Of a stretch of DNA of 13,784 bases, positions 3,001 through 13,784 are shown one piece after another. Each line of letters begins with the position of its first letter. Within the stretch, counting starts at the first letter, position 1. The DNA lies in contig CAMJHJ010000038.1 in assembly GCA_946405485.1 (NCBI GenBank), forward strand, positions 1 through 13,784, written 5' to 3'. The position numbers and the translations under genes were made by a program. The notes below the pieces were generated by a model. It was not told the DNA's origin. It worked only from the letters and a program-made list of their open reading frames with translations, and searched no databases. The DNA is from an uncultured Bacteroidales bacterium. GTDB lineage: Bacteria; Bacteroidota; Bacteroidia; Bacteroidales; UBA932.

Positions 3001-5660
3001 TGGATCTTGCGCGTGGCAAGGACTTCCCGGTCACGGCCGAATACCGTTGCCACGGCCCATTCCTCACCGTCCGCCGTACCCATACGGACCCTGATCTTTT
3101 CCCCAGGCTCCAGCTGGTCCTTTTCCGTCAGGAAGAAGCGGCGGACCGGAGCCGCCAGAGCCTTATCCCTGGCACTGACTTTGAGGATACGGCAACGCTT
3201 GTCTTCACCGATCTCCTTACCCGGAACCTTGGCGGCAACCTGCAGGTCATACAGGCCGGAGGATGGCAAAGCCAGTTTCACGACCGTCCCGGAAAGGACG
3301 GATGCGGAATCCACGACCGCTCCTTTCCCGTCATGAAGGACATAGGAAAGTTGCATCGGGACAGGGTCCCCCTGCGTATTGCGGGCGGTCATCTCGACCC
3401 TGACCGTGTCCGCATCCACCAGGTAACGGGCGGCTTGTTCACGGTATGGCATATAGCGGCGACGGGGACGGAAAGTACCCTGCACCGGCTCATCAGCCGG
3501 CACGAAACTGCCGTCTGCAGCATTCAGGACGTTCATTTCCACCCGAACCTCATCCGCGACATATACGGCGGTCTGGAAATCCAGGGTCTCCCCCGTCGCA
3601 TCGAGGACTTTGACCGTCGTCTGATGAAGACCGGACTGCTTCGGAGTGAAACGGACGACGAAAGAGCCGTCCGCTTCCGGCCGCACCTCCTGCTCGGAAA
3701 CGACCTCCCCATAGCGGAGCACCTGCGCCGTCACCTTGGCGCCGGACAGATTGTGCCCGGAGTAAGAAGTGATCCGGCCTCGTACTTCCGCCTCCTCACC
3801 GACGAGGAAGAGTTTGTCCACAGGTTCGAACTGCAGCGTGAAGGTCGGCAGCACGAATTCATCCACCCGGAAATGCCGGATGCCGATCGTATTCTTGCCT
3901 TTCTTGATCCGGAGCAAGAAGACGCCGCCCCGCTGGCCTTCCGGCAGCGGGAAGGAGCCGGCGACCGAGCCGAAGGCATTCGTCTTCAACTGCTCACGGG
4001 CAATCTCCTCTCCCTGCGCATTGACCAGTACGGCCTCCAGGGAGGCATCCGGAATCACGGAAGCAGACTCCGTCAAATCTCCCTTGAAGTACACTGCCTT
4101 GAACTGCAGGGTATCACCGGGGTTGTAGGCACCACGGTCCATATAGATATTGCAGAACGTATCGACGCGCTGGTCCCGGATGACCGGTTGGAAGCGTCCG
4201 ATCGCCACCTCACCGCTGCGGCGGGTCCGGCCCTTCTCTCCGGGGGTTTCAGCCACCAGGGTATAATAGATGTTGCGGTTCCCGGAGAGCAGCGTCTGCA
4301 TCGAGGCAGGCAGTGGAGTAAAACCATCCAGCCGGACAGATTCCTCCGCAACAGCTTTGTCACCTTTGCGAAGGACCAGTTTGCAGCGGTCCAGCGGCTT
4401 GCCGCTGATATAGTCCGTCACATAGACCGAATAGCCTTTCGCTTCATTCCGATGCGCCAGAGACAGGGTATGGCGGTTGTACGAAGTGGAGGAAAAAAGC
4501 TTTCCGGAACTGGCTTCAATCCGGTAACTCCCGTCATCCAGGTCCGGAAGCGGAACGGCAACGCGGTCCAGGGCGTAAAAGCTCCCGACTCCGTTGCGCA
4601 CCGGAATCCTGGATCCCACCTGAGTCTGTCCCTGATAAATCTTCAGGTCCGCAAGTCCATGGTTCCGGAAGTTCACAATGATGGAATCTTTCCCGACGGA
4701 AACAAACAGGGCCTTATCCTCCAAAGTCCCCGTCAACGCTTTCACACCCTCGCAGGACTTGGCGATACGGGCTTCGGAACCTGTCAGTTTCGCTTTGTCG
4801 GCAAGATATTGCTTGCAGTCGGCGAGCAGGGATTTATAGTCGTCAGACTTCCCGCCATTGCGGTTCAGTTCGGAGAAGCGCAGCTCAAGCAGATCCTCCC
4901 TGGGGTAAAAAGCAACGGCGCCCATCGCAGGATCAGCTGCCATCGCTTCCAGGGCCGGTTTGCGGAGGTCCTTTTTCTCCGCGTCCTGTTCCGGAAGCCG
5001 GCTGGCGATATAATAACGCAACGTGGGAGAGACCGGATAGCGGTCTCCAACCTCAGCCTTAAGGGCAATATAGACTTCATCCTTGTCCGGTTCCTCGAAG
5101 GACATCGAACGGCCACGGAGCAGGTCCCAAAGGGCATACTCCCTGTCATTCCGGACAAATTCCTTCAAGGCTCCGCCGAGATAAGCGCTCAGGTTACGGT
5201 AGAACTCCGGATGGTGGCCTTTAGAGAAACTCTCCCCCTTGGAACGTACATATTCCCAGCGCTCCTCGGTGGATTTGTGGCCGAATTCGCCCATCCAGGT
5301 ATAGGTCACGATCGGCTCGTCAAAACGTTTCACGAGGTCTGCGAATCCGGTCCGCAGGGAATCCTGCAATTTCCAGTTACGGCTCACCATGACGTCGATA
5401 TACGATTTGCCGGCATCATAGAAATCGGCCGGAAGATGCTTCTCCAACGCCTCATCCCGGATATCCTGGAGGATTTCGGCGGCTTTCTGGGGCCTGTCGG
5501 CCTGATGCATCTTTTCGTATTCCGCCCAACGGGCGGTGAGGACGTGTCCGTTCGATTCCATAAGCATATCTTTGGTCAGGGTATTCTTTCCTTGCGCGAG
5601 GAGCAGGATCGTTCCTGCCGCCAGAAGCAGGGTGGCGAGGAGGAAGGGTTTCGTTTTCAT
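1..5660 (-). CDS. Alpha-2-macroglobulin family protein with embedded carboxypeptidase-regulatory domain (C-terminus cut by window edge)
   Basis: The frame is open from ATG 5660 to the left edge: 1886 residues are visible and the true end is probably close. The N-terminus is a signal peptide (MKTKPFLLATLLLAAG..., cleavage probably near LLLAQG), so the protein is exported to the periplasm or surface. Macroglobulin-type segments follow: an MG2-like stretch near residues 503-520 (DRGAYNPGDTLQFKAVYF) and FVLPTFTLQFEP near 600. Residues about 1028-1117 form a carboxypeptidase D regulatory-like domain ending in LDDVVVVGYG, followed by a Met/Ala/Glu-rich linker (about 1124-1168). The A2M/MG7 signature (FLRSDASGDLSFSFRTSDKLSTYHVSVYAH region) is near 1185-1215. 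An alpha/alpha-toroid resembling the thioester domain begins near 1380 and contains NGDGGFGWFEG, but I see no CxEQ thioester. The start overlaps the folC stop (ATGA), implying translational coupling. By family, such proteins are thought to trap proteases; here that is inference. Confidence 0.9.
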   Translation of the reverse strand, partial: MKTKPFLLATLLLAAGTILLLAQGKNTLTKDMLMESNGHVLTARWAEYEKMHQADRPQKAAEILQDIRDEALEKHLPADFYDAGKSYIDVMVSRNWKLQDSLRTGFADLVKRFDEPIVTYTWMGEFGHKSTEERWEYVRSKGESFSKGHHPEFYRNLSAYLGGALKEFVRNDREYALWDLLRGRSMSFEEPDKDEVYIALKAEVGDRYPVSPTLRYYIASRLPEQDAEKKDLRKPALEAMAADPAMGAVAFYPREDLLELRFSELNRNGGKSDDYKSLLADCKQYLADKAKLTGSEARIAKSCEGVKALTGTLEDKALFVSVGKDSIIVNFRNHGLADLKIYQGQTQVGSRIPVRNGVGSFYALDRVAVPLPDLDDGSYRIEASSGKLFSSTSYNRHTLSLAHRNEAKGYSVYVTDYISGKPLDRCKLVLRKGDKAVAEESVRLDGFTPLPASMQTLLSGNRNIYYTLVAETPGEKGRTRRSGEVAIGRFQPVIRDQRVDTFCNIYMDRGAYNPGDTLQFKAVYFKGDLTESASVIPDASLEAVLVNAQGEEIAREQLKTNAFGSVAGSFPLPEGQRGGVFLLRIKKGKNTIGIRHFRVDEFVLPTFTLQFEPVDKLFLVGEEAEVRGRITSYSGHNLSGAKVTAQVLRYGEVVSEQEVRPEADGSFVVRFTPKQSGLHQTTVKVLDATGETLDFQTAVYVADEVRVEMNVLNAADGSFVPADEPVQGTFRPRRRYMPYREQAARYLVDADTVRVEMTARNTQGDPVPMQLSYVLHDGKGAVVDSASVLSGTVVKLALPSSGLYDLQVAAKVPGKEIGEDKRCRILKVSARDKALAAPVRRFFLTEKDQLEPGEKIRVRMGTADGEEWAVATVFGRDREVLATRKIHLSGVCGKPGSLETLEWAYDPAWPEAVRVQVFYFKYGEAVEYDHEFHRVRKTLDLPLSFASFTDRTMPGTEYTFSLKTLPGVEAVAAVYDKSLDAFGRNSWPTVTLRQFSPAYVSCNSVAGSVTGVDPFGSSPKFEAPLPKAQPGKIVGLVVDQDGEPVAGASVMVKGTTKGGVTDMDGKFVLDVVPSGTQLVVSSIGFKTLTVTAMSVMRVVLEEDEQSLDDVVVVGYGATRSNGIRVRGLGMAKAASADAMLMSDAVAEEMAMEAPMSANESVFMSMKEAGEAGPDVPVRERFESALTFQPFLRSDASGDLSFSFRTSDKLSTYHVSVYAHDPSMRNAYAHQEMVVTTPVKVSVVEPKYLYAGDKYVLKVSVANSAGRDLRDGRVILKLFGSADRSSTPFKTLSGALPLLADGATETVDYEIEASEELLKAGILGIQASYVADGVSDGVFLTVPVRAAVQTLTEAHSAVLLAGMDREALITRLRSSFVNTSGADAEMREISILDMVREALPSKVEPEGDDVLSLSEAWYVRLVAGSLGVSFDPETPTEKLLQRILACRNGDGGFGWFEGMKSSPVITAVLLERFAKITDQGLQDGVSDDIKATAVRFLDRNQFDYEWPFWCGGLSTDCYLYIRSFYPRVAFEVKPSGNVTVFNKRMKEFKKYVSEYLVPKKERGLNGAILPKARRLRTLQNLVSGPDGIALAKAWGVSFGTESKMQRSLNADVLSLLEYAVDHRDGGKYYPNAVMPWRGLLESEAYAHSLLCDLLSGLSRVVSVPAAQKQAAADVADGIRLWLMLQKETQHWDTDPAFVDAIHSVLSGPGEVLQTRVIALKKTFDKPFSEIVATGNGFTVSRRFLRAKAVEEKYNNRTEEQNREVLEWQEIAPGAPVQVGDKIAVEYRIWNAENRSFVKLSAPREASLRPVEQLSGHYGWGIRPLRVDGWWTFQPQGYRDVKADHTDYYFDTYPEENTTVREEFFVTQAGLFTAPVVSIESLYAPHYR
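1028..1280 (-). other. Thioester-domain segment of the A2M-like gene, thioester motif not visible
   Basis: This stretch encodes roughly residues 1461-1545 of the A2M-like protein, within the helical toroid that in classical A2M follows the thioester. The diagnostic sequence CxEQ would be expected about 40-60 residues before the DGGFGWF motif (near position 1300). In that place the protein reads MVREALPSKVEPEGDD, without Cys-Glu-Gln. The fold is inferred from the family; the absence of the motif is seen directly in the translation. The call is low confidence as a domain boundary. Confidence 0.4.
2310..2578 (-). other. Carboxypeptidase-regulatory-like domain with SusC-style terminal motif, inside the A2M gene
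   Basis: The encoded segment (about residues 1028-1117) runs GKIVGLVVDQDGEPVAGAS, then TDMDGKFVLDV, then SSIGFKTLTV, then EQSLDDVVVVGYG. This is the pattern of the CarboxypepD_reg-like domain normally found at the N-terminus of SusC/RagA outer-membrane receptors, where the VVVVGYG segment abuts the TonB box. Here it lies in the middle of a macroglobulin protein, just before the A2M/MG7 domain. Domain identity is strong by motif. Any TonB contact is speculation. Confidence 0.8.
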
Positions 5661-7018
5661 TTCGTTTCGAAATAGGTGATGGCTTCACTTACAACAAAAG
5701 TACTGCCACCGATGTAGATCAGAGAGTTTTCGGTCGCATTTTTTTCGGCTTGCCGTATCCCGTCTGCTACAGAGCCGCAGATGTCGGCCCCCTTGGGGAA
5801 TTGGGCGGCTATCTGCGCGGCAGGGAGCGCACGGGGAGTATTCGGGGTGACGAAATAATACTCGGCGTCGCGGGGCATCAAGGGGATGATATCATCGAGA
5901 GCCTTGTCGGCCATGATGCCATAGACGATGAGAAGGCGGTCGTAGCGGCCGCTATCCATCATAGCTCTCAGTTGCGCGAAGTTCTCCCGGAGGGCGGGAG
6001 GATTGTGACCGATGTCGCAGACCGTCAGGGGTTTCAACTGCAAGGTCTCCCAACGGCCGCGAAGACCGGTTCGGGCGGCGGTATGCGCAAGGGCGTCCCA
6101 ATCAGGTTCAATACCCAGCAAGTCCAGCGCCGCCAGGACGGTCCGAAGGTTCTTCCACTGATACTCGCCCCGCAGGTCCATTGCCATTGCTTGCACAGGA
6201 GGGCGGTCGAAGGCTGTGAACTTTGGACTGCATTCCCCCGAAGGGGTTAAACTCTCCGCAGTCCGAAGTTCACAGCCTTCGACCGTCCCGCGCATGCCCG
6301 CGGCCGGACCGTCCAGCGGAACCAAATCCTCTGCAAAGAACAACGGACACGGAGCGGAAGCGGCAGCAGACTCAAAGACAGGCGCCGTTTCGGAGTCCCT
6401 CTCCCCCACCAACGCCGGTACACCCGCCTTGAAGATGCCGGCCTTCTCCCCGGCAATCGCGGAACGGGTCGATCCCAACTGCGCGCAATGGTCCAAACCG
6501 ATCGAAGTCACAAGGGACAGTTCCGGCACCAGGATGTTGGTGCTGTCCAGACGTCCTCCCAGCCCCACCTCGACCACGGCAATATCCACTTCCTCCCGGA
6601 CGAACCAGTCGAAAGCCATCCCCGTCGTGATTTCGAAAAACGAGAGCGACAATTCATCAAAAACGGCATTCCACCGATCCACGAAGGATAAGACGTCTTC
6701 CCGCGCAATCATCCGGAACCCATCCGGCTCCACGATCTTGATGCGCTCCCGGAAATCCAGCAGATGCGGCGATGTGAACAATCCCACCCGCAACCCTCTG
6801 GCTGCCAGGACAGAGGCAAGCATCGACGACACGGACCCCTTACCGTTCGTCCCTGCCACGTGGATGGTCTTCAGCGCCTCGGAAGGATGCCCCAGACGCG
6901 CATCGAATGCATACATATGCTCCAGCCCCGGCTTGTAGGCATCGGCGCTGAAACCCGCTTTCGACACAGATGGAAAGCGGACGAAGAGGGCGGAAAGGAT
7001 TTCGTCGTATCGATCCAT
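5657..7018 (-). CDS. folC: Bifunctional folylpolyglutamate synthase / dihydrofolate synthase
   Basis: A 453-residue cytoplasmic Mur-ligase-family enzyme that adds glutamate to dihydropteroate and to reduced folates using ATP. The ATP-binding loop HVAGTNGKGS is at residues 53-62, TSPHLLDFRERI at 82-93, VVEVGLGGRLDSTN at 148-161, GEKAGIFK at 190-197, and DIGHNPPA (start of the C-terminal ligase domain) at 335-342. Length is somewhat above the usual 420-430. The excess is explained by residues 245-272, which are encoded by a palindromic element inserted in frame (6204-6285). The ATG at 7018 gives the standard N-terminus. The stop overlaps the start of the A2M-like gene by 4 bases (ATGA), so the two are probably one operon. 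Function is secure from the motifs; whether the insertion affects activity is unknown, but catalytic motifs on both sides are intact. Confidence 0.97.
   Translation of the reverse strand: MDRYDEILSALFVRFPSVSKAGFSADAYKPGLEHMYAFDARLGHPSEALKTIHVAGTNGKGSVSSMLASVLAARGLRVGLFTSPHLLDFRERIKIVEPDGFRMIAREDVLSFVDRWNAVFDELSLSFFEITTGMAFDWFVREEVDIAVVEVGLGGRLDSTNILVPELSLVTSIGLDHCAQLGSTRSAIAGEKAGIFKAGVPALVGERDSETAPVFESAAASAPCPLFFAEDLVPLDGPAAGMRGTVEGCELRTAESLTPSGECSPKFTAFDRPPVQAMAMDLRGEYQWKNLRTVLAALDLLGIEPDWDALAHTAARTGLRGRWETLQLKPLTVCDIGHNPPALRENFAQLRAMMDSGRYDRLLIVYGIMADKALDDIIPLMPRDAEYYFVTPNTPRALPAAQIAAQFPKGADICGSVADGIRQAEKNATENSLIYIGGSTFVVSEAITYFETK
6204..6285. repeat. Palindromic element copy 1, in frame inside folC
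   Basis: Left arm 6204-6231 and right arm 6258-6285 form a 28-bp stem, perfect except for one T6224/G6265 pair. The apical segment 6232-6257 is ATTCCCCCGAAGGGG followed by TTAAACTCTCC, flanked on both sides by GC. The apical part can form a small nested hairpin (CCCC-CGAA-GGGG on plus, CCCC-UUCG-GGGG on minus). Just outside, GGG (6201-6203) and CCC (6287-6289) extend the stem past a one-base bulge (T6286). Read with folC it encodes residues 245-272 (centre ESLTPSGEC) without a stop. The same apical core recurs in the copies at 9614-9696 and 9715-9795. Confidence 0.9.
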
Positions 7019-7020
7019 GG

Positions 7021-7060
7021 CACTTTGAACTGAATGTAAAATTAACTATTTTTACAATCC
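7021..7060 (+). promoter_or_regulatory. Candidate Bacteroidota promoter for the PurL-like/phoH pair, with inverted repeat
   Basis: TTG at 7025-7027 and TATTTTTA at 7047-7054 are 19 bases apart, close to the Bacteroidota housekeeping promoter (TTG, about 19-21 bases, TAnnTTTG). Transcription would start near 7061, leaving a leader of about 15 bases. An inverted repeat, TGTAAAA (7035-7041) and TTTTACA (7050-7056) with 8 bases between, overlaps the -7 box. It could be an operator or could place a -7-like TAATTTTA on the minus strand for folC. The folC side has no well-spaced TTG, so a folC promoter here is weak. Confidence 0.45.
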
Positions 7061-7075
7061 GATACTATACCGGCT

Positions 7076-8215
7076 ATGGAAAAGATTTCCGCATTGTATG
7101 CGCGATACGTCATCGACGGCATCCCCCAGGAGCTCTCCCCCGGAGAGATGCTGGACGAGTGCCTGGCCAGCAAAGACTGGCGGGACACCCCTGTTTCCGC
7201 GGAAACCATCCTGGATGAGACCGTAGACCCCCAGCCCCGAAACGACAGTTTTGACAGTTGGCGGATCCGGGATTATCTGGCATTGACCGGCAACGCACCG
7301 GAACGGGAGCTCCCCGTCCTGTTCTCCGCACCTTATACGAAGATCCTGATCGAGCGGGCGCTGATCGATGCGGTCTGGCAGGAAGGTAACTTCCGGCTCG
7401 GAGACCTCAGTCTCAAGGCGGAATGGACCTGGGACCTCGGCCGTATCGGCAATGCGGCCGCCTTTCACGCTTCCGCACAAGCTGCGAGCGAAATCCTGAC
7501 CGGGCTTTCCCTCAAGCTTTCCTCCTATGGTTTCACCGAAGGGGAGAAATGCGGTCTTCATCTCTCAACATCTGTTTTCGGAGATGAATACGAAGCCGAG
7601 GAGTTCCAGTTCGAACTCCCCTACCGTACCGCGCATCCCACTTTCCTGCCCGTAAGACGCCCTACGCTCGCATTTGTGGACGATCCGGATTCCTGGCTCA
7701 TCTACATTCCGATGGATAACTGCGAGTTCCGTCTCGGCGGATCGCTGCTCTCCGATTGCCTGCAGCAAGGAGGCGATATCGCACCCGATCCGGCCGATCC
7801 CGATTATTTCATCGACTGTTATGAGGTACTCCGGGAAATGGTGGAGGACAATGTGATCATTGCGGGTGCCACGGTCGGCGACGGAGGTTTGCTGACCACC
7901 TTGAAAAAAATGGCCGCCGCTGCCGGGGATAAGGTAGGTGCCAGGATCAGCATCGGCGACCTGATGCAAGCCTCCGGCGAACAGGACATCGTCCGCCTGC
8001 TCTTCGCCGAGGTCCCGGGCGTGGTCATCCAGATCCGGGATGAAGATTATGACTACCTGGACGCCGAGTTCATGCTCCAGGACGTGGTCTTCTATCCTTT
8101 GGGCCATCCGGTACACGGAAAGGGTGAGATCAAGGTCGACACAAGCGGAAAATCCGGCATCCAAACCATCCTGGAGTCCATCATCCGCAGCCAATCCTCC
8201 GAAGGAGAAGATTAA
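7076..8215 (+). CDS. PurL/AIR-synthase-related protein, probable non-catalytic paralog, function unknown
   Basis: A 379-residue soluble protein without signal peptide or membrane segment. Residues about 108-150 (LSLKAEWTWDLGRIGNAAAF onward) resemble the PurL stretch before its GKDSxSM substrate motif, but that motif reads LKLSSYGF here. Residues 219-345 match the C-terminal AIR-synthase domain of phosphoribosylformylglycinamidine synthase: LGGSLLSDCLQQ (220-230), DPDYFIDCYEVLREMVEDN, IIAGATVGDGGLLTTL (261-276; the family usually has a HD/SxGGL pattern, and the His is absent), and LFAEVPGVVIQI (309-320). It corresponds to about a quarter of a full PurL and lacks the glutaminase domain, so normal purine synthesis activity is unlikely. 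It precedes phoH by 15 bases and is probably co-transcribed. Family assignment is from motif comparison by eye; role unknown. Confidence 0.72.
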   Translation: MEKISALYARYVIDGIPQELSPGEMLDECLASKDWRDTPVSAETILDETVDPQPRNDSFDSWRIRDYLALTGNAPERELPVLFSAPYTKILIERALIDAVWQEGNFRLGDLSLKAEWTWDLGRIGNAAAFHASAQAASEILTGLSLKLSSYGFTEGEKCGLHLSTSVFGDEYEAEEFQFELPYRTAHPTFLPVRRPTLAFVDDPDSWLIYIPMDNCEFRLGGSLLSDCLQQGGDIAPDPADPDYFIDCYEVLREMVEDNVIIAGATVGDGGLLTTLKKMAAAAGDKVGARISIGDLMQASGEQDIVRLLFAEVPGVVIQIRDEDYDYLDAEFMLQDVVFYPLGHPVHGKGEIKVDTSGKSGIQTILESIIRSQSSEGED

Positions 8216-8230
8216 AGACAACATATCCAT

Positions 8231-9595
8231 ATGGCTCGAATCCCAAAACCCGTCGGAAAAAAACCGAAGATATTCGTCCTGGACACCAACGTGATCCTTC
8301 ACGACCATCGGGCGATCCGGAAATTCCAGGATAATGACCTGGTCATCCCCGTCGCCGTCATCGAAGAACTCGACAAATTCAAGAAAGGCACGGATGCGCT
8401 AGCGTACAATGCGCGCGGCTTCCTGCGCGAACTGGACAAGTTGACGGAAGGTCGTCTTTTCGGACCTCGCGGCGTCCCGTTGGGCAAGAATCTCGGAATG
8501 ATCAAGATCGAGCCCAACCACCCCTTCCCCAGCGAGATGAAGGACCTCTTCATCGACGATATCCAGGACCACCGTATCCTGTCAACCGCTATCTGGGTAC
8601 GGGACAACAACCCCGACCGATTCGTCGCCCTCGTGACCAAGGACATCAATCTCCGGATGAAGTCCAAGGCCGCCGGCATGATGGTCCAGGATTATCTGAG
8701 TGACAAATTGGATGACGAGCGTGTGGAAGGAACCCAGCGTGAGGTCCAGGAGATCCGCATCGGGGACGATGTGGCCCAGGACCTGCTCTACGGGCCTGAG
8801 ACCGCCGTAGACTGGGAGGATGTGACCGAAAAACAGCCCGCGCCCAATACGCTCTTCAAATTGCGCAGGCAATCCGACGACAGCGAAACCATCTGCGCCC
8901 GATTCGATCACCACCAGGGCCGCATCATCCTGGTCAAGAGCCGCAGCGCCTACGGCATCCGTCCCCGCAACGAAGAGCAGAAGTTTGCGATGGATGCCTG
9001 CCTGAACCCCCACATTCCCCTGGTTTCACTCACCGGCGGCGCAGGCACCGGCAAGACCCTCATCGCCCTGGCCTCCGCCCTGGAGCAGGAGCGGGACTAT
9101 GACCAGATCATCCTTTCCCGTCCTACCGTAATCCTGGGCAATCAGGACATCGGTTTCCTTCCCGGCGACCAGAAGAGCAAGATGAGCCCTTATCTGCAGC
9201 CTCTGATGGACAATCTGAACGTCATCAAGGCGCAGTTCCGCCCCGGAAGCAAGGAGGCCCTCAAACTCGAGGCCATGGTGACCAGCGAGAAGCTGATGAT
9301 CACGCCCTTGGCTTACATCCGCGGCCGCAGTCTGGGCAAATGTTTCTTCATCATCGACGAGGCGCAGAACCTGACGCCGCATGAGATCAAGACCATCATC
9401 ACGCGCGCCGGCGAAGGGACCAAGATGGTCTTCACGGGCGATATCTTCCAAATTGACCAGCCTTATCTGGACCAGTGGTCCAACGGTCTGAGTCATCTGG
9501 GTGAGAAAATGACGGGGCAGAAGCTTTTTGAACATGTTTTCCTCCGCAAGGGTGAGCGAAGCGAACTGAGCGACCTGGCCGCCAAGCTGCTTTAG
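8231..9595 (+). CDS. phoH: PIN domain-PhoH ATPase fusion (PhoH2-type RNA helicase/ribonuclease)
   Basis: 454 residues, the usual length for PhoH2-type proteins. The N-terminal PIN nuclease domain (about 12-150) begins FVLDTNVIL, with acidic residues D18, E45/E46, D113 (DIQDHRILSTA) and D138 (LVTKDINLR) in the positions expected for metal binding. The C-terminal PhoH domain (about 240-454) has Walker A GGAGTGKT (269-276), LSRPTV (295-300), and Walker B CFFIIDEAQN (371-380; D376, E377), followed by the sensor-like MVFTGDIFQID. The family couples ATP hydrolysis to RNA unwinding and cleavage; in mycobacteria PhoH2 is encoded with an upstream antitoxin-like partner. Here the upstream partner is the PurL-like protein, 15 bases away. 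The ATG at 8231 is the first start giving the PIN strand. No clear Shine-Dalgarno is present, as is common in this phylum. Confidence 0.95.
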   Translation: MARIPKPVGKKPKIFVLDTNVILHDHRAIRKFQDNDLVIPVAVIEELDKFKKGTDALAYNARGFLRELDKLTEGRLFGPRGVPLGKNLGMIKIEPNHPFPSEMKDLFIDDIQDHRILSTAIWVRDNNPDRFVALVTKDINLRMKSKAAGMMVQDYLSDKLDDERVEGTQREVQEIRIGDDVAQDLLYGPETAVDWEDVTEKQPAPNTLFKLRRQSDDSETICARFDHHQGRIILVKSRSAYGIRPRNEEQKFAMDACLNPHIPLVSLTGGAGTGKTLIALASALEQERDYDQIILSRPTVILGNQDIGFLPGDQKSKMSPYLQPLMDNLNVIKAQFRPGSKEALKLEAMVTSEKLMITPLAYIRGRSLGKCFFIIDEAQNLTPHEIKTIITRAGEGTKMVFTGDIFQIDQPYLDQWSNGLSHLGEKMTGQKLFEHVFLRKGERSELSDLAAKLL

Positions 9596-9613
9596 CGGTC
9601 GCCAAGTTTAGAT

Positions 9614-9696
9614 AGTCTGAGGCCCGCTGTATTTTTAAGGAGCATTCCCCGAAGGGATAAAACTCTCGCTCCTTAAAATACAGCGGGCCTCAGACT
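9614..9696. repeat. Palindromic element copy 2
   Basis: Left arm 9614-9643 and right arm 9668-9696 pair over 29 bp with one extra T in the left arm (T-run 9632-9636). All other positions are Watson-Crick. The apical segment 9644-9667 begins ATTCCCCGAAGGGATAAAAC and ends CTC, flanked by GC on both sides, matching copy 1 in folC. The minus strand offers CCC-UUCG-GGG. Further out, CGGTCG (9596-9601) and CGACCG (9703-9708) also face each other, as they do at the base of copy 1. Confidence 0.9.
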
Positions 9697-9714
9697 TACG
9701 TACGACCGTCGCAA

Positions 9715-9795
9715 AAGCCGCGGGCCCAGCCATTTTTGGAAGCATTCCCCGAAAGGGTTCATTTCTGCTTCCGAAAATGGCTGGGCCTGCGGCTT
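9715..9795. repeat. Palindromic element copy 3, downstream of ppdK
   Basis: Left arm 9715-9743 and right arm 9767-9795 form a 29-bp stem with two G/T pairs (G9722/T9788, T9737/G9773) and no bulge. The apical segment 9744-9766 begins ATTCCCCGAAAGGG and ends TTCATTTCT, flanked by GC, so the core is shared with copies 1 and 2 while the 3' part has drifted. It starts 18 bases after copy 2 ends and lies 10 bases beyond the ppdK stop. Four T residues follow on the ppdK strand, so it may act as a weak terminator or an mRNA 3' end stabiliser. Confidence 0.9.
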
Positions 9796-9805
9796 CTAGG
9801 CGAGC

Positions 9806-12523
9806 CTATGCCTGCTTGATGGCAGCCTGGGCGGCGGCAAGGCGGGCGATCGGCACGCGGAACGGCGAGCAAGACACATAGTCCAGGCCGATCTTGTTGA
9901 AGAAGTCGATCGAATCCGGATCTCCACCGTGCTCTCCACAGATACCGCACTTCAGATCGGGACGCTTGCTGCGGCCGGCCTGCACGCCATACTCGACGAG
10001 CTTACCGACGCCCTTGGTATCGATCGTCTGGAACGGATCCGCATCGAGGATCTTGTTGCCCAGATAGTCACCCATGAAAGTACCCACATCGTCACGGCTG
10101 AAGCCGAGCGTCATCTGGGTCAAGTCGTTGGTACCGAAGCTGAAGAATTCAGCCGTACGGGCCATGCGGTCAGCGGTCAGCGTTGCGCGAGGGATCTCGA
10201 TCATCGTACCGAAATGATAGGTGATGCCGACGCCGTAAGCGCCTTCCACCTCTGCCTTGATACGGTCGCAGATCGCTTTCTGGAAACTCAACTCGCGGGC
10301 GGAAATCGTCACAGGGATCATGATCTCCGGCATCGGGGTGAAGCCTTCCTGCATCAACTCAGCCGTAGCGGAGAAGATGGCGCGATACTGGGTCTCAGCG
10401 ATGAGCGGATACGTGACATGCAGACGGACGCCACGGTGACCCATCATCGGGTTGGTCTCGTGCAGTTTCTCTCCTCTCTTTTCGATTTCCCGGACACTGA
10501 TACCCAGCTCCTTGGCCAGTTCCTGCTCTTTATCGATTCCCTTCGGGACAAACTCATGGAGCGGCGGGTCAAGCAGACGGAAGACGACGGGCTTATGGTC
10601 CATGATCTTCATCGTGCTCTTGACGGCGGCCTTGATATAAGGCTCCAGTTCATCGAGGGCGGACTTGCGCTCTTCCTCGGTGTCGCAAAGGATCATCTTG
10701 CGGAGCTTGGCGAGCGGCGTCTCAGAATTGCGGCCGTAGAACATATGCTCGATACGGAAGAGACCGATGCCCTCGGCGCCGAAGGAAAGCGCGCGCTGCG
10801 CATCCTCCGGGGTGTCCGCATTGGTGCGAATGCCCAGGCGGCGATATTTGTCGACGATCGACATGAACTTGATGAAGAGCGGATTCTCGGAAGCATCCTT
10901 GGTTTCGATCTTCTCACCATAGACATAGCCCTTGGAGCCATTGAGGCTGAGCCAGTCACCTTCCTTGAGGACGGCCTCGCCGAAACGGACGGTCTTGTCG
11001 GCGAAATTAATCTTCATGGACTCACAGCCGACGATGCAGCATTTACCCCAACCACGGGCCACAAGGGCGGCGTGGGAAGTCATGCCACCACGGGTGGTCA
11101 GGATACCTGCGGAAGCACGCATGCCCTCGATATCCTCCGGGGAGGTCTCCTCACGGATGAGAATGACGTTCTCACCACGGGCATTGGCAGCCATGGCTGC
11201 CTCGGAAGTGAAGACGATCGTGCCGACAGCTCCACCCGGAGAAGCGGGCAGGCCCTTCGCCAGGACGGCAGCCTTCTTCTCGGAAGCCGTATCGAGGATC
11301 GGGTGCAGGATCTCATCCAGCTGGCTCGGGGAAACACGCATCACTGCGGTCTTCTCGTCGATCATGCCTTCATCAAGCATGTCCATCGCCATCTGAAGGG
11401 CAGCCAGTCCCGTGCGCTTGCCGATACGGCACTGCAGCATGTAAAGCTGACCATCCTGGATCGTGAACTCGATATCCTGCATGTCGTGGAAGTGGTTTTC
11501 CAGCAGGGTGCGGATGCTGTCAAGCTCCTTATAAACCTTGGGCATCGCGGTCTCAAGGGACTCGAGATGCTTGTTATGCTCGGTCTTGGTGGCCTCATTG
11601 AGCGGGTTCGGGGTACGGATACCGGCGACCACATCTTCGCCCTGGGCATTGATCAGCCACTCACCATAGAACTTGTTGTCACCGGACGCAGGGTTACGGG
11701 AGAAAGCGACACCCGTTGCAGACGTCTCACCCATGTTGCCGAATACCATCGACTGGACATTGACAGCCGTGCCCCAATCATCGGGAATCTTCTCGATGCG
11801 ACGGTAAGCGATAGCGCGCTTGCCGTTCCAAGACTTGAACACGCCACCGATGGAACCCCACAGCTGCGCTTCCGCAGTGTCAGGGAACTCGACGCCAAGC
11901 ACTTCCTTGACCTTGGCTTTGAACTGGTCGCACAGGGTCTTGAGTTCATCTGCCGTAATCTCGGTGTCGGACTTGTAGCCGCGCGCCTCCTTGAGCTCGC
12001 CCATCATGCGGTCAAGCTGCTGGCGGATACCCTGGCCATCCTCAGGCTCAATGCCTTCGGCTTTCTCCATCACGACGTCGGAATACATCATGATGAGACG
12101 ACGGTAAGCGTCATATACGAATCGGGGATTACCCGTCTTCTTGATCATGCCAGGCAAGGTCGCAGAGCAAAGGCCGATGTTGAGGATGGTGTCCATCATA
12201 CCGGGCATCGAGCTGCGGGCACCGGAACGGCAGCTGACGAGGAGCGGATCCTCGGCATCGCCGAATTTCTTGCCCATCAGGGTCTCGGTAGCTTTCAGCG
12301 CAGCCGCAACCTCTCTCTTCAGGCTGTCGGTATAGCCGCCACCCAGGGAGTAGTACTCCGCACAGCACTCGGTAGTGATGGTGAATCCTGCAGGGACCGG
12401 GAGTCCCAGCTTGCTCATTTCGGCGAGGTTGGCACCCTTACCGCCGAGAAGCTCGCGCATCGAGCCATCGCCTTCGGCAGTCTTGCCACCGAAACGGTAA
12501 ACTCTCTTTTTGTTGTCTTCCAT
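9806..12523 (-). CDS. ppdK: Pyruvate, phosphate dikinase
   Basis: A 905-residue cytoplasmic enzyme that interconverts pyruvate, ATP and phosphate with PEP, AMP and pyrophosphate, at the pyruvate/PEP node of glycolysis and gluconeogenesis. The N-terminal ATP-grasp domain starts with LLGGKGANLAEMSKLGLPVPAGF (split here by family as GGKGANLAEM, 27-36). It includes SCRSGARSSMPGMMDTILN (97-115) and the DIEFTIQDGQLYMLQCR segment near 350-366. The swivelling phosphohistidine domain has GGMTSHAALVARGWGKCCIVG with catalytic His484. The C-terminal PEP domain has MMGHRGVRL, GTMIEIPRA, SFGTNDLTQMTLGFSRDD, and CGICGEHGGDP with catalytic Cys862. Length is normal for the family and all catalytic motifs are intact. 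It has its own candidate promoter upstream and ends facing phoH. The start at 12523 is the first Met ahead of the conserved VYRFGGKTAEGD. Confidence 0.98.
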   Translation of the reverse strand: MEDNKKRVYRFGGKTAEGDGSMRELLGGKGANLAEMSKLGLPVPAGFTITTECCAEYYSLGGGYTDSLKREVAAALKATETLMGKKFGDAEDPLLVSCRSGARSSMPGMMDTILNIGLCSATLPGMIKKTGNPRFVYDAYRRLIMMYSDVVMEKAEGIEPEDGQGIRQQLDRMMGELKEARGYKSDTEITADELKTLCDQFKAKVKEVLGVEFPDTAEAQLWGSIGGVFKSWNGKRAIAYRRIEKIPDDWGTAVNVQSMVFGNMGETSATGVAFSRNPASGDNKFYGEWLINAQGEDVVAGIRTPNPLNEATKTEHNKHLESLETAMPKVYKELDSIRTLLENHFHDMQDIEFTIQDGQLYMLQCRIGKRTGLAALQMAMDMLDEGMIDEKTAVMRVSPSQLDEILHPILDTASEKKAAVLAKGLPASPGGAVGTIVFTSEAAMAANARGENVILIREETSPEDIEGMRASAGILTTRGGMTSHAALVARGWGKCCIVGCESMKINFADKTVRFGEAVLKEGDWLSLNGSKGYVYGEKIETKDASENPLFIKFMSIVDKYRRLGIRTNADTPEDAQRALSFGAEGIGLFRIEHMFYGRNSETPLAKLRKMILCDTEEERKSALDELEPYIKAAVKSTMKIMDHKPVVFRLLDPPLHEFVPKGIDKEQELAKELGISVREIEKRGEKLHETNPMMGHRGVRLHVTYPLIAETQYRAIFSATAELMQEGFTPMPEIMIPVTISARELSFQKAICDRIKAEVEGAYGVGITYHFGTMIEIPRATLTADRMARTAEFFSFGTNDLTQMTLGFSRDDVGTFMGDYLGNKILDADPFQTIDTKGVGKLVEYGVQAGRSKRPDLKCGICGEHGGDPDSIDFFNKIGLDYVSCSPFRVPIARLAAAQAAIKQA

Positions 12524-12655: not shown

Positions 12656-13784
12656 CTAGCGGGTGACGCAGATGGAGACACGGTTTTCTTCAGGGATCTC
12701 GGAAACCTGCTTGGTGTCACCGTAGTAGTTGGTGGTGATGCGATCCTGGGAGATGCCGGCGTCGAGGAGGCACTGGCAGACCACGGCGGCACGCTGCTCG
12801 GAGAGGAACAGGTTGCGCTTGGCGGTACCCGTAGCCTTATCAGCATAACCGGTGATGGAAACAACAGCCTCAGGATACTGCTTCATGACAGCAATGATGT
12901 GGTCGATCTTCTCAACCTCGGAAGGATTGATATTGTACTTGTTGATCGTGAAGTACACATTCTCGACAGCAGCGCGGGCCTTCGCACGGGCAGCCTCAGC
13001 AGCAGCCTTCTCAGCGGCAAGACGGTCAGCGGCAGCCTTCTCGGCAGCGGCCTTCTCAGCGGCAGCACGCTCCAGGGCAGCCTTCTCGGCAGCAGCCTTC
13101 TCAGCGGCAGCCTTAGCAGCAGCGGCAGCGGCAGCCTCAGCGGCAGCAGCCTCAGCAGCAGCGAGAGCTGCGGCACGACGCTTGGCAGCACCGAAGGAGA
13201 ACTTCAGGCCGGCAAGGGCGGTCAGCTGGTAGTCGAAATCAACGACACCGCCGAAGAGCGTCCAGGCGTCACCCACCTTCGAATTGAAGTGGTCGGTCAG
13301 GACATTGTCGGTCAGCTCGAGGGAAAGGGCGAGACCATCCGTCAGACGGAAGTCGGCGCCGAGACCGAAGCGACCGCAGAAGGAGAGGACGGGATTGTCC
13401 CACAGCCAGTTCTTCTCAGGGAAGTCAGCCTTGATAGCCTGAGCCTCCTTGTTGTTGAACCGGGTGTTGAAACCGATACCGGCGAAGAGATAAGGATTGA
13501 CAACACGGTTGTATTTATACTTCCCGAAAAGGTTGCACAGGTCAAACATGGCGTCCAGGTTCAGCTGGCCGAAGTTGAACTTATACTTCTCATCATAGAG
13601 AGGCAGGGCACCCTTACCTTCCCAAGCGGAGAGCTGGCCACGGAGACCGAACACAGGAGTAAACTGGTAACCAAGATCCAGCGCAGCACGGGGAGAAAGG
13701 AGGTTATTGGCGTGGGTCTCACCGGCGGTCAGGGAGATACCACCCTTGGCACCGAGATACCAGCCCGGGAAGAACTCATCTGCA
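12656..13784 (-). CDS. OmpA-family outer-membrane protein with Ala-rich helical linker (N-terminus beyond window)
   Basis: 376 residues are visible. The frame stays open to the right edge, and a GTG at 13654 that could be taken as a start is internal, since the upstream codons (FFPGWYLGAKGGISLTAGE...) are a typical first barrel strand. Visible parts in order: a beta-barrel (about residues 1-200, ending ALAGLKFSFGAAKRR), an Ala/Glu/Lys-rich helical linker of about 60-70 residues (repeated AAAEKA), and an OmpA C-terminal peptidoglycan-binding domain starting near ENVYFTINKYNINPSE. That domain contains ITGYADKATGTAKRNLFLSEQRA, and ends NRVSICVTR. The family anchors the outer membrane to the cell wall. 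The gene has its own terminator. The missing part should be a signal peptide and a few residues. Confidence 0.93.
   Translation of the reverse strand, partial: ADEFFPGWYLGAKGGISLTAGETHANNLLSPRAALDLGYQFTPVFGLRGQLSAWEGKGALPLYDEKYKFNFGQLNLDAMFDLCNLFGKYKYNRVVNPYLFAGIGFNTRFNNKEAQAIKADFPEKNWLWDNPVLSFCGRFGLGADFRLTDGLALSLELTDNVLTDHFNSKVGDAWTLFGGVVDFDYQLTALAGLKFSFGAAKRRAAALAAAEAAAAEAAAAAAAKAAAEKAAAEKAALERAAAEKAAAEKAAADRLAAEKAAAEAARAKARAAVENVYFTINKYNINPSEVEKIDHIIAVMKQYPEAVVSITGYADKATGTAKRNLFLSEQRAAVVCQCLLDAGISQDRITTNYYGDTKQVSEIPEENRVSICVTR
12989..13172 (-). repeat. Degenerate tandem repeats encoding the OmpA Ala-rich linker
   Basis: On the plus strand, units such as GCGGCAGCCTTCTCAGCGG and GGCAGCCTTCTCGGCAGC recur many times. 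On the coding strand they give AAAEKAAAEKAALERAAAEK-type helix. The low-complexity DNA is prone to slippage in multiples of 15 bases (AAAEK units), which would change linker length without breaking the frame. This is a feature of the gene, not a separate element. Confidence 0.8.

What the first reader, a model, noticed from the sequence alone, without database searches (positions are those of the whole stretch)
6201..9795. Undescribed-looking family of three palindromic elements with a shared apical core and different arms
Three inverted repeats (6204-6285, 9614-9696, 9715-9795) each have a 28-30 nt arm, a closing GC on both sides, and an apical segment starting ATTCCCC(C)GAA(A)GGG; copies 1 and 2 continue with AAACTCTC. 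Finding the same 23-26 nt cap at the tip of three long hairpins within 3.6 kb cannot be chance. One copy is inside a gene and two are intergenic, which points to a dispersed, mobile or formerly mobile repeat. I do not recognise a named family; Rickettsia palindromic elements and REP sequences are the closest behaviours known to me.
Basis: seen in the sequence. Interest (0 to 1): 0.85.

Follow-up and report, generated by a model that had tools for sequence, protein, structure and literature searches.

The report
Dispersed hairpin repeat with fixed cap
These three hairpins belong to a family of about 80-letter DNA palindromes scattered through some rumen Bacteroidales, lying mostly just past the ends of genes or in frame inside them; the two arms of a copy often change together while the tip stays similar, which makes them a good case for asking how small palindromes stay paired as their letters change.

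Summary
Observation confirmed; interpretation partly supported. The three hairpins are real and belong to a dispersed family: the closest genome held (G001, 95% PhoH identity) has 26 model matches in the 1.58 Mb I read. A covariance model finds copies in 13 of 300 genomes of the genus, abundantly in three.

Anatomy: 76-87 nt; two ~30-nt arms, about 90% paired (G-T included) but differing between copies; closing GC/GC; ~22-nt tip, typically ATTCCCCGAAGGGTTnnnTCCT.

Of 77 copies, 26 lie inside open reading frames and 51 are intergenic, 31 of these between convergent genes; 40 of 47 lie within 25 nt of a facing stop codon. Several sites are shared between species with both arms changed; one tip is inverted. 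Three G001 copies with near-identical arms lie in genes otherwise unlike, suggesting copying.

Best reading: an old, occasionally mobile REP/RPE-like element whose arms are kept complementary, possibly by template switching; intergenic copies probably serve as shared 3' ends of convergent genes. Not a classical REP or REPIN: arms are not self-palindromic and no family hairpin flanks the Y1/RAYT genes examined. No Rfam match; my searches of open-licence papers showed no description.

The parts
6201..6288 (+). Hairpin copy 1 (arms 6201-6231 and 6258-6288, cap 6232-6257); in frame inside folC, between the two Mur-ligase domain matches
   Evidence: CM R1 76.3 bits, a member of the model's own alignment
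9614..9696 (+). Hairpin copy 2 (left arm 9614-9643, cap 9644-9667, right arm 9668-9696, one bulged base); starts 18 nt after the phoH stop
   Evidence: CM R1 73.2 bits, a member of the model's own alignment
9715..9795 (+). Hairpin copy 3 (arms 9715-9744 and 9766-9795, cap 9745-9765); 10 nt from the ppdK stop
   Evidence: CM R1 88.2 bits, a member of the model's own alignment; same-site copies in G001, G165 and G156
5657..7018 (-). folC (dihydrofolate/folylpolyglutamate synthase), host gene of copy 1
   Evidence: Pfam Mur_ligase_M and Mur_ligase_C; homologues with and without the insert
8231..9595 (+). PhoH-like ATPase with PIN domain, upstream neighbour of copy 2
   Evidence: Pfam PhoH, PIN_4
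9806..12523 (-). ppdK, pyruvate phosphate dikinase, convergent neighbour next to copy 3
   Evidence: Pfam PPDK_N, PEP-utilizers

Best explanation
A family of old, non-autonomous, occasionally mobile palindromic elements of about 80 bp (shared cap, closing GC, variable 30-nt arms). Shown: dispersal, pairing, shared sites between species, presence inside open reading frames, clustering just behind stop codons, one inverted cap at DNA level. Inferred: (1) copies spread rarely, by an unidentified enzyme; (2) after insertion, template switching between the arms during replication copies changes from one arm to the other and sometimes flips the cap, so arms drift while staying paired; (3) copies survive where they do little harm, in tolerant parts of proteins (read in frame) and just behind genes, where the stable hairpin, often with a somewhat U-rich foot, serves as a shared terminator or 3'-end protector of convergent transcripts.
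For: Dispersal. Pairing despite sequence change: 93.6% of cells paired, 28 of 30 pairs with a change on both sides, 0 of 500 shuffles reach the covariation score. In seven same-site pairs that align without gaps (210 stem positions; I left out other shared sites, among them the decayed L252/L269 and the shifted L176:19332/L249:4036), 23 positions changed from one Watson-Crick pair to another on both sides, against 29 one-sided changes and 9 others. Cap flip: window copy 2 against G165 L261:4062. Arm homogenisation plus spacer inversion is the described signature of template switching (PMC8604942, abstract). Copying: G001 L176:19332, L136:1708 and L152:3872 share 17-18 of 20 outer-arm bases; the L176 and L152 proteins resemble each other only in the 37 residues of the insert (65% identity), and the L136 and L152 proteins, though both carry MFS domains, give no match better than E = 0.03. 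Position: 31 convergent, 16 co-directional, 1 divergent, 3 without a called gene on one side, 26 in ORFs; 40 of 47 within 25 nt of a facing stop; 13 of 31 convergent gaps leave 25 nt or less on both sides of the hairpin. T content at the distal foot 3.4 of 12 (n = 54) against 1.5 in in-gene copies (n = 26), p about 5e-6.
Against: Among one-sided changes at shared sites G-T outnumbers mismatch 19 to 10, as RNA selection would also give; over all intergenic copies mismatches outnumber G-T 110 to 52 of 1490 positions, but that count includes the ragged outer ends, so the choice between template switching and RNA selection stays open. The terminator scan finds no site at copies 2 and 3, though it allows loops of 3-8 nt only; copy 2 has no T-run behind it. 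No target duplication or clean empty site was recovered; the MFS orthologue in G156 has other sequence there. Some same-site copies have lost pairing (G165 L269, 16 of 30 ungapped). The cap flip rests on one DNA case and one protein-level case.
Confidence: 0.5

Rival explanations
1. It is a REPIN-like element moved in trans by one of the genus's Y1/RAYT proteins, which would recognise the GCA-cap-TGC tip.
For: Y1/RAYT-like genes are common in the genus (110 of 151; 37 of 41 with a RAYT protein query). They are present in the seven main carriers tested by handle (G001, at E 2.9e-4 below the curated cut-off and confirmed by protein; G156, G165, G225, G059, G237, G008) and in G064. Several are flanked by paired palindromes; the best-formed pairs total 87-88 nt, often with TGCTCCC...GGGAGCA ends around a 14-16 nt spacer, which resembles GGGAGCA-cap-TGCTCCC and the 76-87 nt length here.
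Against: 0 of 59 fetched Y1 stretches (about 1.5 kb each side or less, some overlapping) hold a family hairpin, including all six Y1 places of G001 found. G119, with one weak family match, is not among the genomes with a PF01797 match. Family arms are not self-palindromic (mean z -0.07, 2 of 76 below -2) while eight RAYT-flanking REPs, picked as hairpins, are (mean z -6.45). No fixed tag outside the arms.
Confidence: 0.25
2. Not mobile: a vertically inherited class of bidirectional transcription terminators whose tip is conserved because a protein or RNA polymerase recognises it.
For: Convergent location and short gaps; same-site copies across species; L045 has an ordinary bidirectional terminator in the convergent phoH-ppdK gap; G-T exceeds mismatch among one-sided changes at shared sites (19 to 10).
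Against: 26 of 77 copies are inside open reading frames; near-identical arms in genes otherwise unlike; patchy presence, 13 of 300 genomes (strict filters, so a lower bound).
Confidence: 0.15
3. A structured regulatory RNA or RNA-protein binding element whose conserved cap is the functional part.
For: The cap is much more conserved than the arms between copies, though the 21 model copies were picked by CATTCCCC; among 76 model matches 57 have CATTCCCC and 71 a relaxed form.
Against: Cap orientation relative to the adjacent gene is mixed (21 sense, 33 antisense next to stops); no Rfam match above threshold for the window or six related loci.
Confidence: 0.06
4. Assembly artefact: hairpins made by fold-back errors in metagenome assembly.
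For: The named genomes of the related loci are nearly all metagenome assemblies.
Against: Same-site copies in several assemblies with different but paired arms; in-frame copies in homologous proteins from other sources; shared cap.
Confidence: 0.02

Closest known systems
Rickettsia palindromic elements (RPE)
   Same: Palindromic, dispersed, many copies read in frame inside unrelated genes; no known mobilising enzyme (the last recalled).
   Different: RPEs are described as about 150 bp with a conserved encoded peptide (PMC10969869, passages); here 76-87 nt, arms differ from copy to copy, and the cap is read in either orientation (18 opposite, 8 same).
REP sequences (GTAG/CGTC families)
   Same: Behind gene ends; in two species most convergent copies lie within 20 bp of both ORFs; some inside ORFs (PMC3733652, section 15).
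   Different: REPs are 20-40 bp with stems of 6-13 bp and a GTAG or CGTC tag (PMC3733652, passages, and listing); here about 30-nt arms and no fixed outer tag.
REPINs (REP doublets linked to RAYT)
   Same: Two inverted arms around a conserved spacer form one long hairpin, of a length like that of RAYT-flanking pairs in this genus.
   Different: REPINs are doublets of REP sequences with a proximal relation to specific RAYTs (PMC3116915, abstract); arms here are not self-palindromic and no RAYT is linked.
Bidirectional intrinsic terminators of convergent genes
   Same: Single hairpin between two facing stop codons, with compensated stem changes.
   Different: Longer stem, about 22-nt conserved cap, weak or absent U-tract, and a third of copies inside open reading frames.

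Membership tests
REP (GTAG/CGTC) | 20-40 bp palindrome with 6-13 bp stem | tested here: not met
   76 full copies are 76-87 nt; 21 copies support a 30-pair stem
REP (GTAG/CGTC) | Conserved GTAG or CGTC tag at one end | tested here: not met
   Positions 31-36 from the cap carry no information in 21 copies, left side
REP (GTAG/CGTC) | Located behind genes, often between convergent ORFs | tested here: met
   31 of 51 intergenic copies convergent; 40 of 47 within 25 nt of a facing stop
REPIN | Two inverted arms with conserved spacer forming one hairpin | tested here: met
REPIN | Each arm is a self-palindromic REP | tested here: not met
   Arm z mean -0.07 over 76 copies, against -6.45 for eight RAYT-flanking REPs
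REPIN | Proximal relation to a cognate RAYT gene | tested here: not met
   0 of 59 Y1 stretches carry a family hairpin; most Y1 genes of the genus were not fetched
Rickettsia palindromic element | In-frame insertion into unrelated protein genes | tested here: met
   26 of 77 copies inside ORFs called by my own script; hosts with Pfam matches include folC, MFS, DnaX, phosphoglucomutase, GH65
Rickettsia palindromic element | About 150 bp, with a conserved encoded peptide | tested here: not met
   Length 76-87 nt; left arms average 45% identity in 21 copies
MITE | Terminal inverted repeats matching an autonomous transposon, and target-site duplication | tested here: inconclusive
   No cognate transposon identified and no clean empty site recovered
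Intrinsic terminator | GC-rich hairpin followed by a U-tract | tested here: inconclusive
   T at distal foot 3.4 of 12 against 1.5 in in-gene copies, but no terminator-like site at copies 2 and 3 (scan allows loops of 3-8 nt only)
Intrinsic terminator | Stops transcription in vivo | not testable with these tools
   Needs RNA 3'-end data

The most novel reading that the evidence does not exclude
A self-repairing palindrome: a dispersed element whose most constant part is its cap, while the stem is continuously rewritten but kept paired by template switching that also flips the cap. The lineage persists as a shape rather than as a sequence, and doubles as a ready-made bidirectional terminator and as a source of new protein segments.
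Probability: 0.25. Interest if true: 0.75.

Novelty: new variant of a known kind. Interest (0 to 1): 0.52.

Why it matters
A dispersed palindrome with a constant cap and changing but paired arms lets one ask directly whether DNA-level arm copying or RNA selection keeps palindromes paired: the same element sits behind genes and inside reading frames, in several related species. It also explains odd in-frame inserts in conserved proteins such as FolC, DnaX and phosphoglucomutase in rumen Bacteroidales. That REP-type families are known mainly from other groups is recalled, apart from PMC3733652, which lists CGTC repeats in Bacteroidetes (passage).

Tried and rejected
Arms copied from the target at each insertion: rejected. 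In the printed rows the folC homologues P0008, P0010 and P0012 have only a short linker, so both arms are inserted, and some copies do share arms.

Loop inserted into pre-existing terminator hairpins: neither supported nor refuted; in most of the 73 loci compared ppdK is co-directional with phoH, so few convergent gaps were comparable.

G071 as a second carrier (4 exact cap matches): rejected. The four lie in non-palindromic sequence; the model gives one fragmentary match at E = 0.41.

G001's best Y1 gene as mobiliser: its own flanking palindromes are CCATTGGG-type, not this family.

Subfamily with CCCCCGGAAGCATTTCCC arms as an abundant source: low copy, 9 of 400 genomes, at most 4 places per genome at up to 3 mismatches.

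Rfam: only sub-threshold matches to hairpin families. Literature (searches; open-licence PMC only): no description of this family seen in the listings.

On the second reading I lowered two odds (best explanation 0.55 to 0.5, novel case 0.3 to 0.25) and raised the terminator rival to 0.15, because the 19-to-10 excess of G-T over mismatch at shared sites had not been weighed.
Full report
CHECK. The three hairpins exist at the stated places, fold far better than shuffles on both strands, and 100 mononucleotide shuffles of the window gave no hairpin with arms of 22 nt or more. Rfam has no match in the window at its own thresholds, and only sub-threshold matches for six related loci. The window resembles rumen and gut Bacteroidales metagenome genomes; the closest is L001 (MAG RGIG1509, goat abomasum, 95% PhoH identity; 83-90% nucleotide identity). 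No whole genome is held for the window, so I worked with the genome of L001 (G001).

FAMILY. G001 holds 15 exact CATTCCCCNAAGG sites against 0 for the reversed pattern. 12 of the 15 loci have a long hairpin there; L082 has unpaired flanks, L085 pairs weakly (found by the model as L135:9675, 50 bits) and L095 is cut by a contig end. A hairpin search without a motif in 1.50 Mb of G001 gave 39 hairpins (arm 18 or more), of which 17 carry the cap by my filter. A covariance model from 21 copies finds 22 places in those 1.50 Mb (one cut by a contig end, both-strand duplicates counted once) and 4 more in 84 kb of further G001 sequence. In 300 genomes of the genus, 13 have a match at E 0.001 or better; G001, G156 and G165 have 14-15, a lower bound because only 15 candidates per genome were scored and the filters were strict. 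The four cap matches in G071 are not hairpins.

ANATOMY. Copies are 76-87 nt (76 full copies). The 21 model copies were chosen with CATTCCCC in them, so that part of the cap is constant by choice; among 76 model matches 57 have CATTCCCC and 71 a relaxed GC.TT..CCC. The G before it is constant in all 21 and its partner C too; the C-G pair next to the cap holds in 20 of 21. Left arms average 45% identity between copies; inner positions and a T-run are conserved, and positions 31-36 from the cap carry no information. Pairing: 93.6% of cells, 28 of 30 pairs with double changes, covariation 0.934 against 0.221 shuffled; slid controls fall to 38-49% paired. I call the arms variable but homologous, since some copies share them.

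POSITION. Of 77 copies in the loci fetched from eight genomes and the window (one partial match dropped), 26 lie in open reading frames called by my own script, 31 between convergent genes, 16 between co-directional genes, 1 between divergent genes and 3 without a called gene on one side. 40 of 47 intergenic copies lie within 25 nt of a facing stop. In G001 7 of 12 are convergent against 20% of intergenic bases (p = 0.0035). These loci were chosen because the model hit them, so the counts describe found copies. L045, lacking the family, has an ordinary bidirectional terminator in the convergent phoH-ppdK gap. T content at the distal foot is higher beside stops than in in-gene copies (3.4 against 1.5 of 12), but the terminator scan finds nothing at copies 2 and 3 (it allows loops of 3-8 nt only).

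IN GENES. Copy 1 lies between the Mur-ligase matches of FolC (137-224 and 321-439). In the rows printed, P0002, P0004 and P0006 have it while P0008, P0010 and P0012 have a short linker. P0006 reads ...CELWTAFPRRG..., the other strand of the cap (compare the + strand ORF 5750-6250), so its cap is flipped relative to the window; this is inferred from protein only. I scanned ten host proteins against Pfam; eight have matches. By the approximate insert positions, the insert lies outside the best matched stretch in seven (FolC, MFS-cellulase junction, ROK, just before phosphoglucomutase domain I, behind DnaX domain III, near the N terminus of a GH65 protein, between FGE-sulfatase and BNR) and inside it in one (the MFS protein L136). 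G156 folC carries three copies; G001 and G165 folC carry none by the model.

EVOLUTION. [quoted passage not shown] the phoH-side copy of the window matches one in G165 with the cap inverted, and is missing in G001. Other shared sites: L138/L240 and, inside genes, L136/L268, L176/L249 (two) and L177/L250; at L252/L269 the G165 partner has decayed to 16 of 30 pairs. Over seven pairs that align without gaps: 23 double Watson-Crick switches, 19 one-sided with G-T, 10 one-sided mismatches, 9 other, 149 unchanged; other shared sites were left out. Over all copies, intergenic ones show 110 mismatches to 52 G-T and in-gene ones 72 to 62. In B. cereus terminators most single changes give GU (PMC5381666, passages). 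My two counts point different ways, so template switching is favoured mainly by the double switches and the cap flip: template switching between inverted repeats homogenises arms and inverts the spacer (PMC8604942, abstract; PMC8794818 seen only in the listing). Three G001 copies share 17-18 of 20 outer-arm bases; the proteins of L176 and L152 are alike only in the insert (65% over 37 residues), and those of L136 and L152 give no match better than E = 0.03. I read this as copying of the whole element.

MOBILISER. Y1/RAYT-like proteins are present in the seven carriers tested by handle and in G064, not in the rows of G119 (one weak family match), and in 110 of 151 genus genomes overall, so co-occurrence is uninformative; carriers G177, G187, G205 and G300 were not tested. 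Several Y1 genes are flanked by paired palindromes, the best-formed totalling 87-88 nt, recalling REPINs (PMC3116915, abstract). None of 59 fetched Y1 stretches (some overlapping) has a family hairpin, and family arms lack the self-palindromy of those REPs. The mover is unknown.

VERDICT. A new palindromic repeat family, RPE/REP-like in behaviour, not a member of either by tested features. Mobility is likely, the terminator role plausible, template-switch maintenance possible but unproven, the mover unidentified.

Noticed in passing
L206, L301, L304, L308, L309, L320, L333 (flanks of Y1 genes): RAYT-like Y1 genes of this Bacteroidales genus carry their own REPIN-like palindrome pairs, the best-formed totalling 87-88 nt (REP about 37 nt, spacer 14-16 nt), mostly different from gene to gene.
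   Followed up: partly
L180 233-1051 and L132 10623-11478: Two further Y1 genes of G001 have long similar sequences on both sides in the same orientation (flanks printed; 71 nt at 91.5% for the second, while one search reported none for the first in the shorter locus L349).
   Followed up: no
L136 5439-5523; folC linker of L001: A second repeat with a core like CTCAGCCGCAGC...AGGATG appears in a hairpin and in the folC linker of the sister species; few exact copies of its pieces in G001.
   Followed up: partly
proteins P0014 and P0018 (FolC homologues), C-terminal part: Tandem copies of an LDRT-type peptide (as in LDRTDQGSAV) near the C terminus of FolC in relatives; possibly yet another in-frame repeat.
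   Followed up: no
L082 around 1513 (G001 C4:48553): A cap with two long flanks that do not pair with each other, as if halves of two elements had been joined or the arms replaced.
   Followed up: no
L152 2458-5004: One open frame joins an MFS sugar transporter to a GH5 cellulase domain, with a family hairpin in the stretch between them.
   Followed up: no
window 12957-13165: Repeats at 15-nt steps in the OmpA-family gene 12656-13654, encoding an alanine-rich stretch.
   Followed up: no
window 7076-8215: A 379-aa protein between folC and phoH with no Pfam match at E 1e-5.
   Followed up: no
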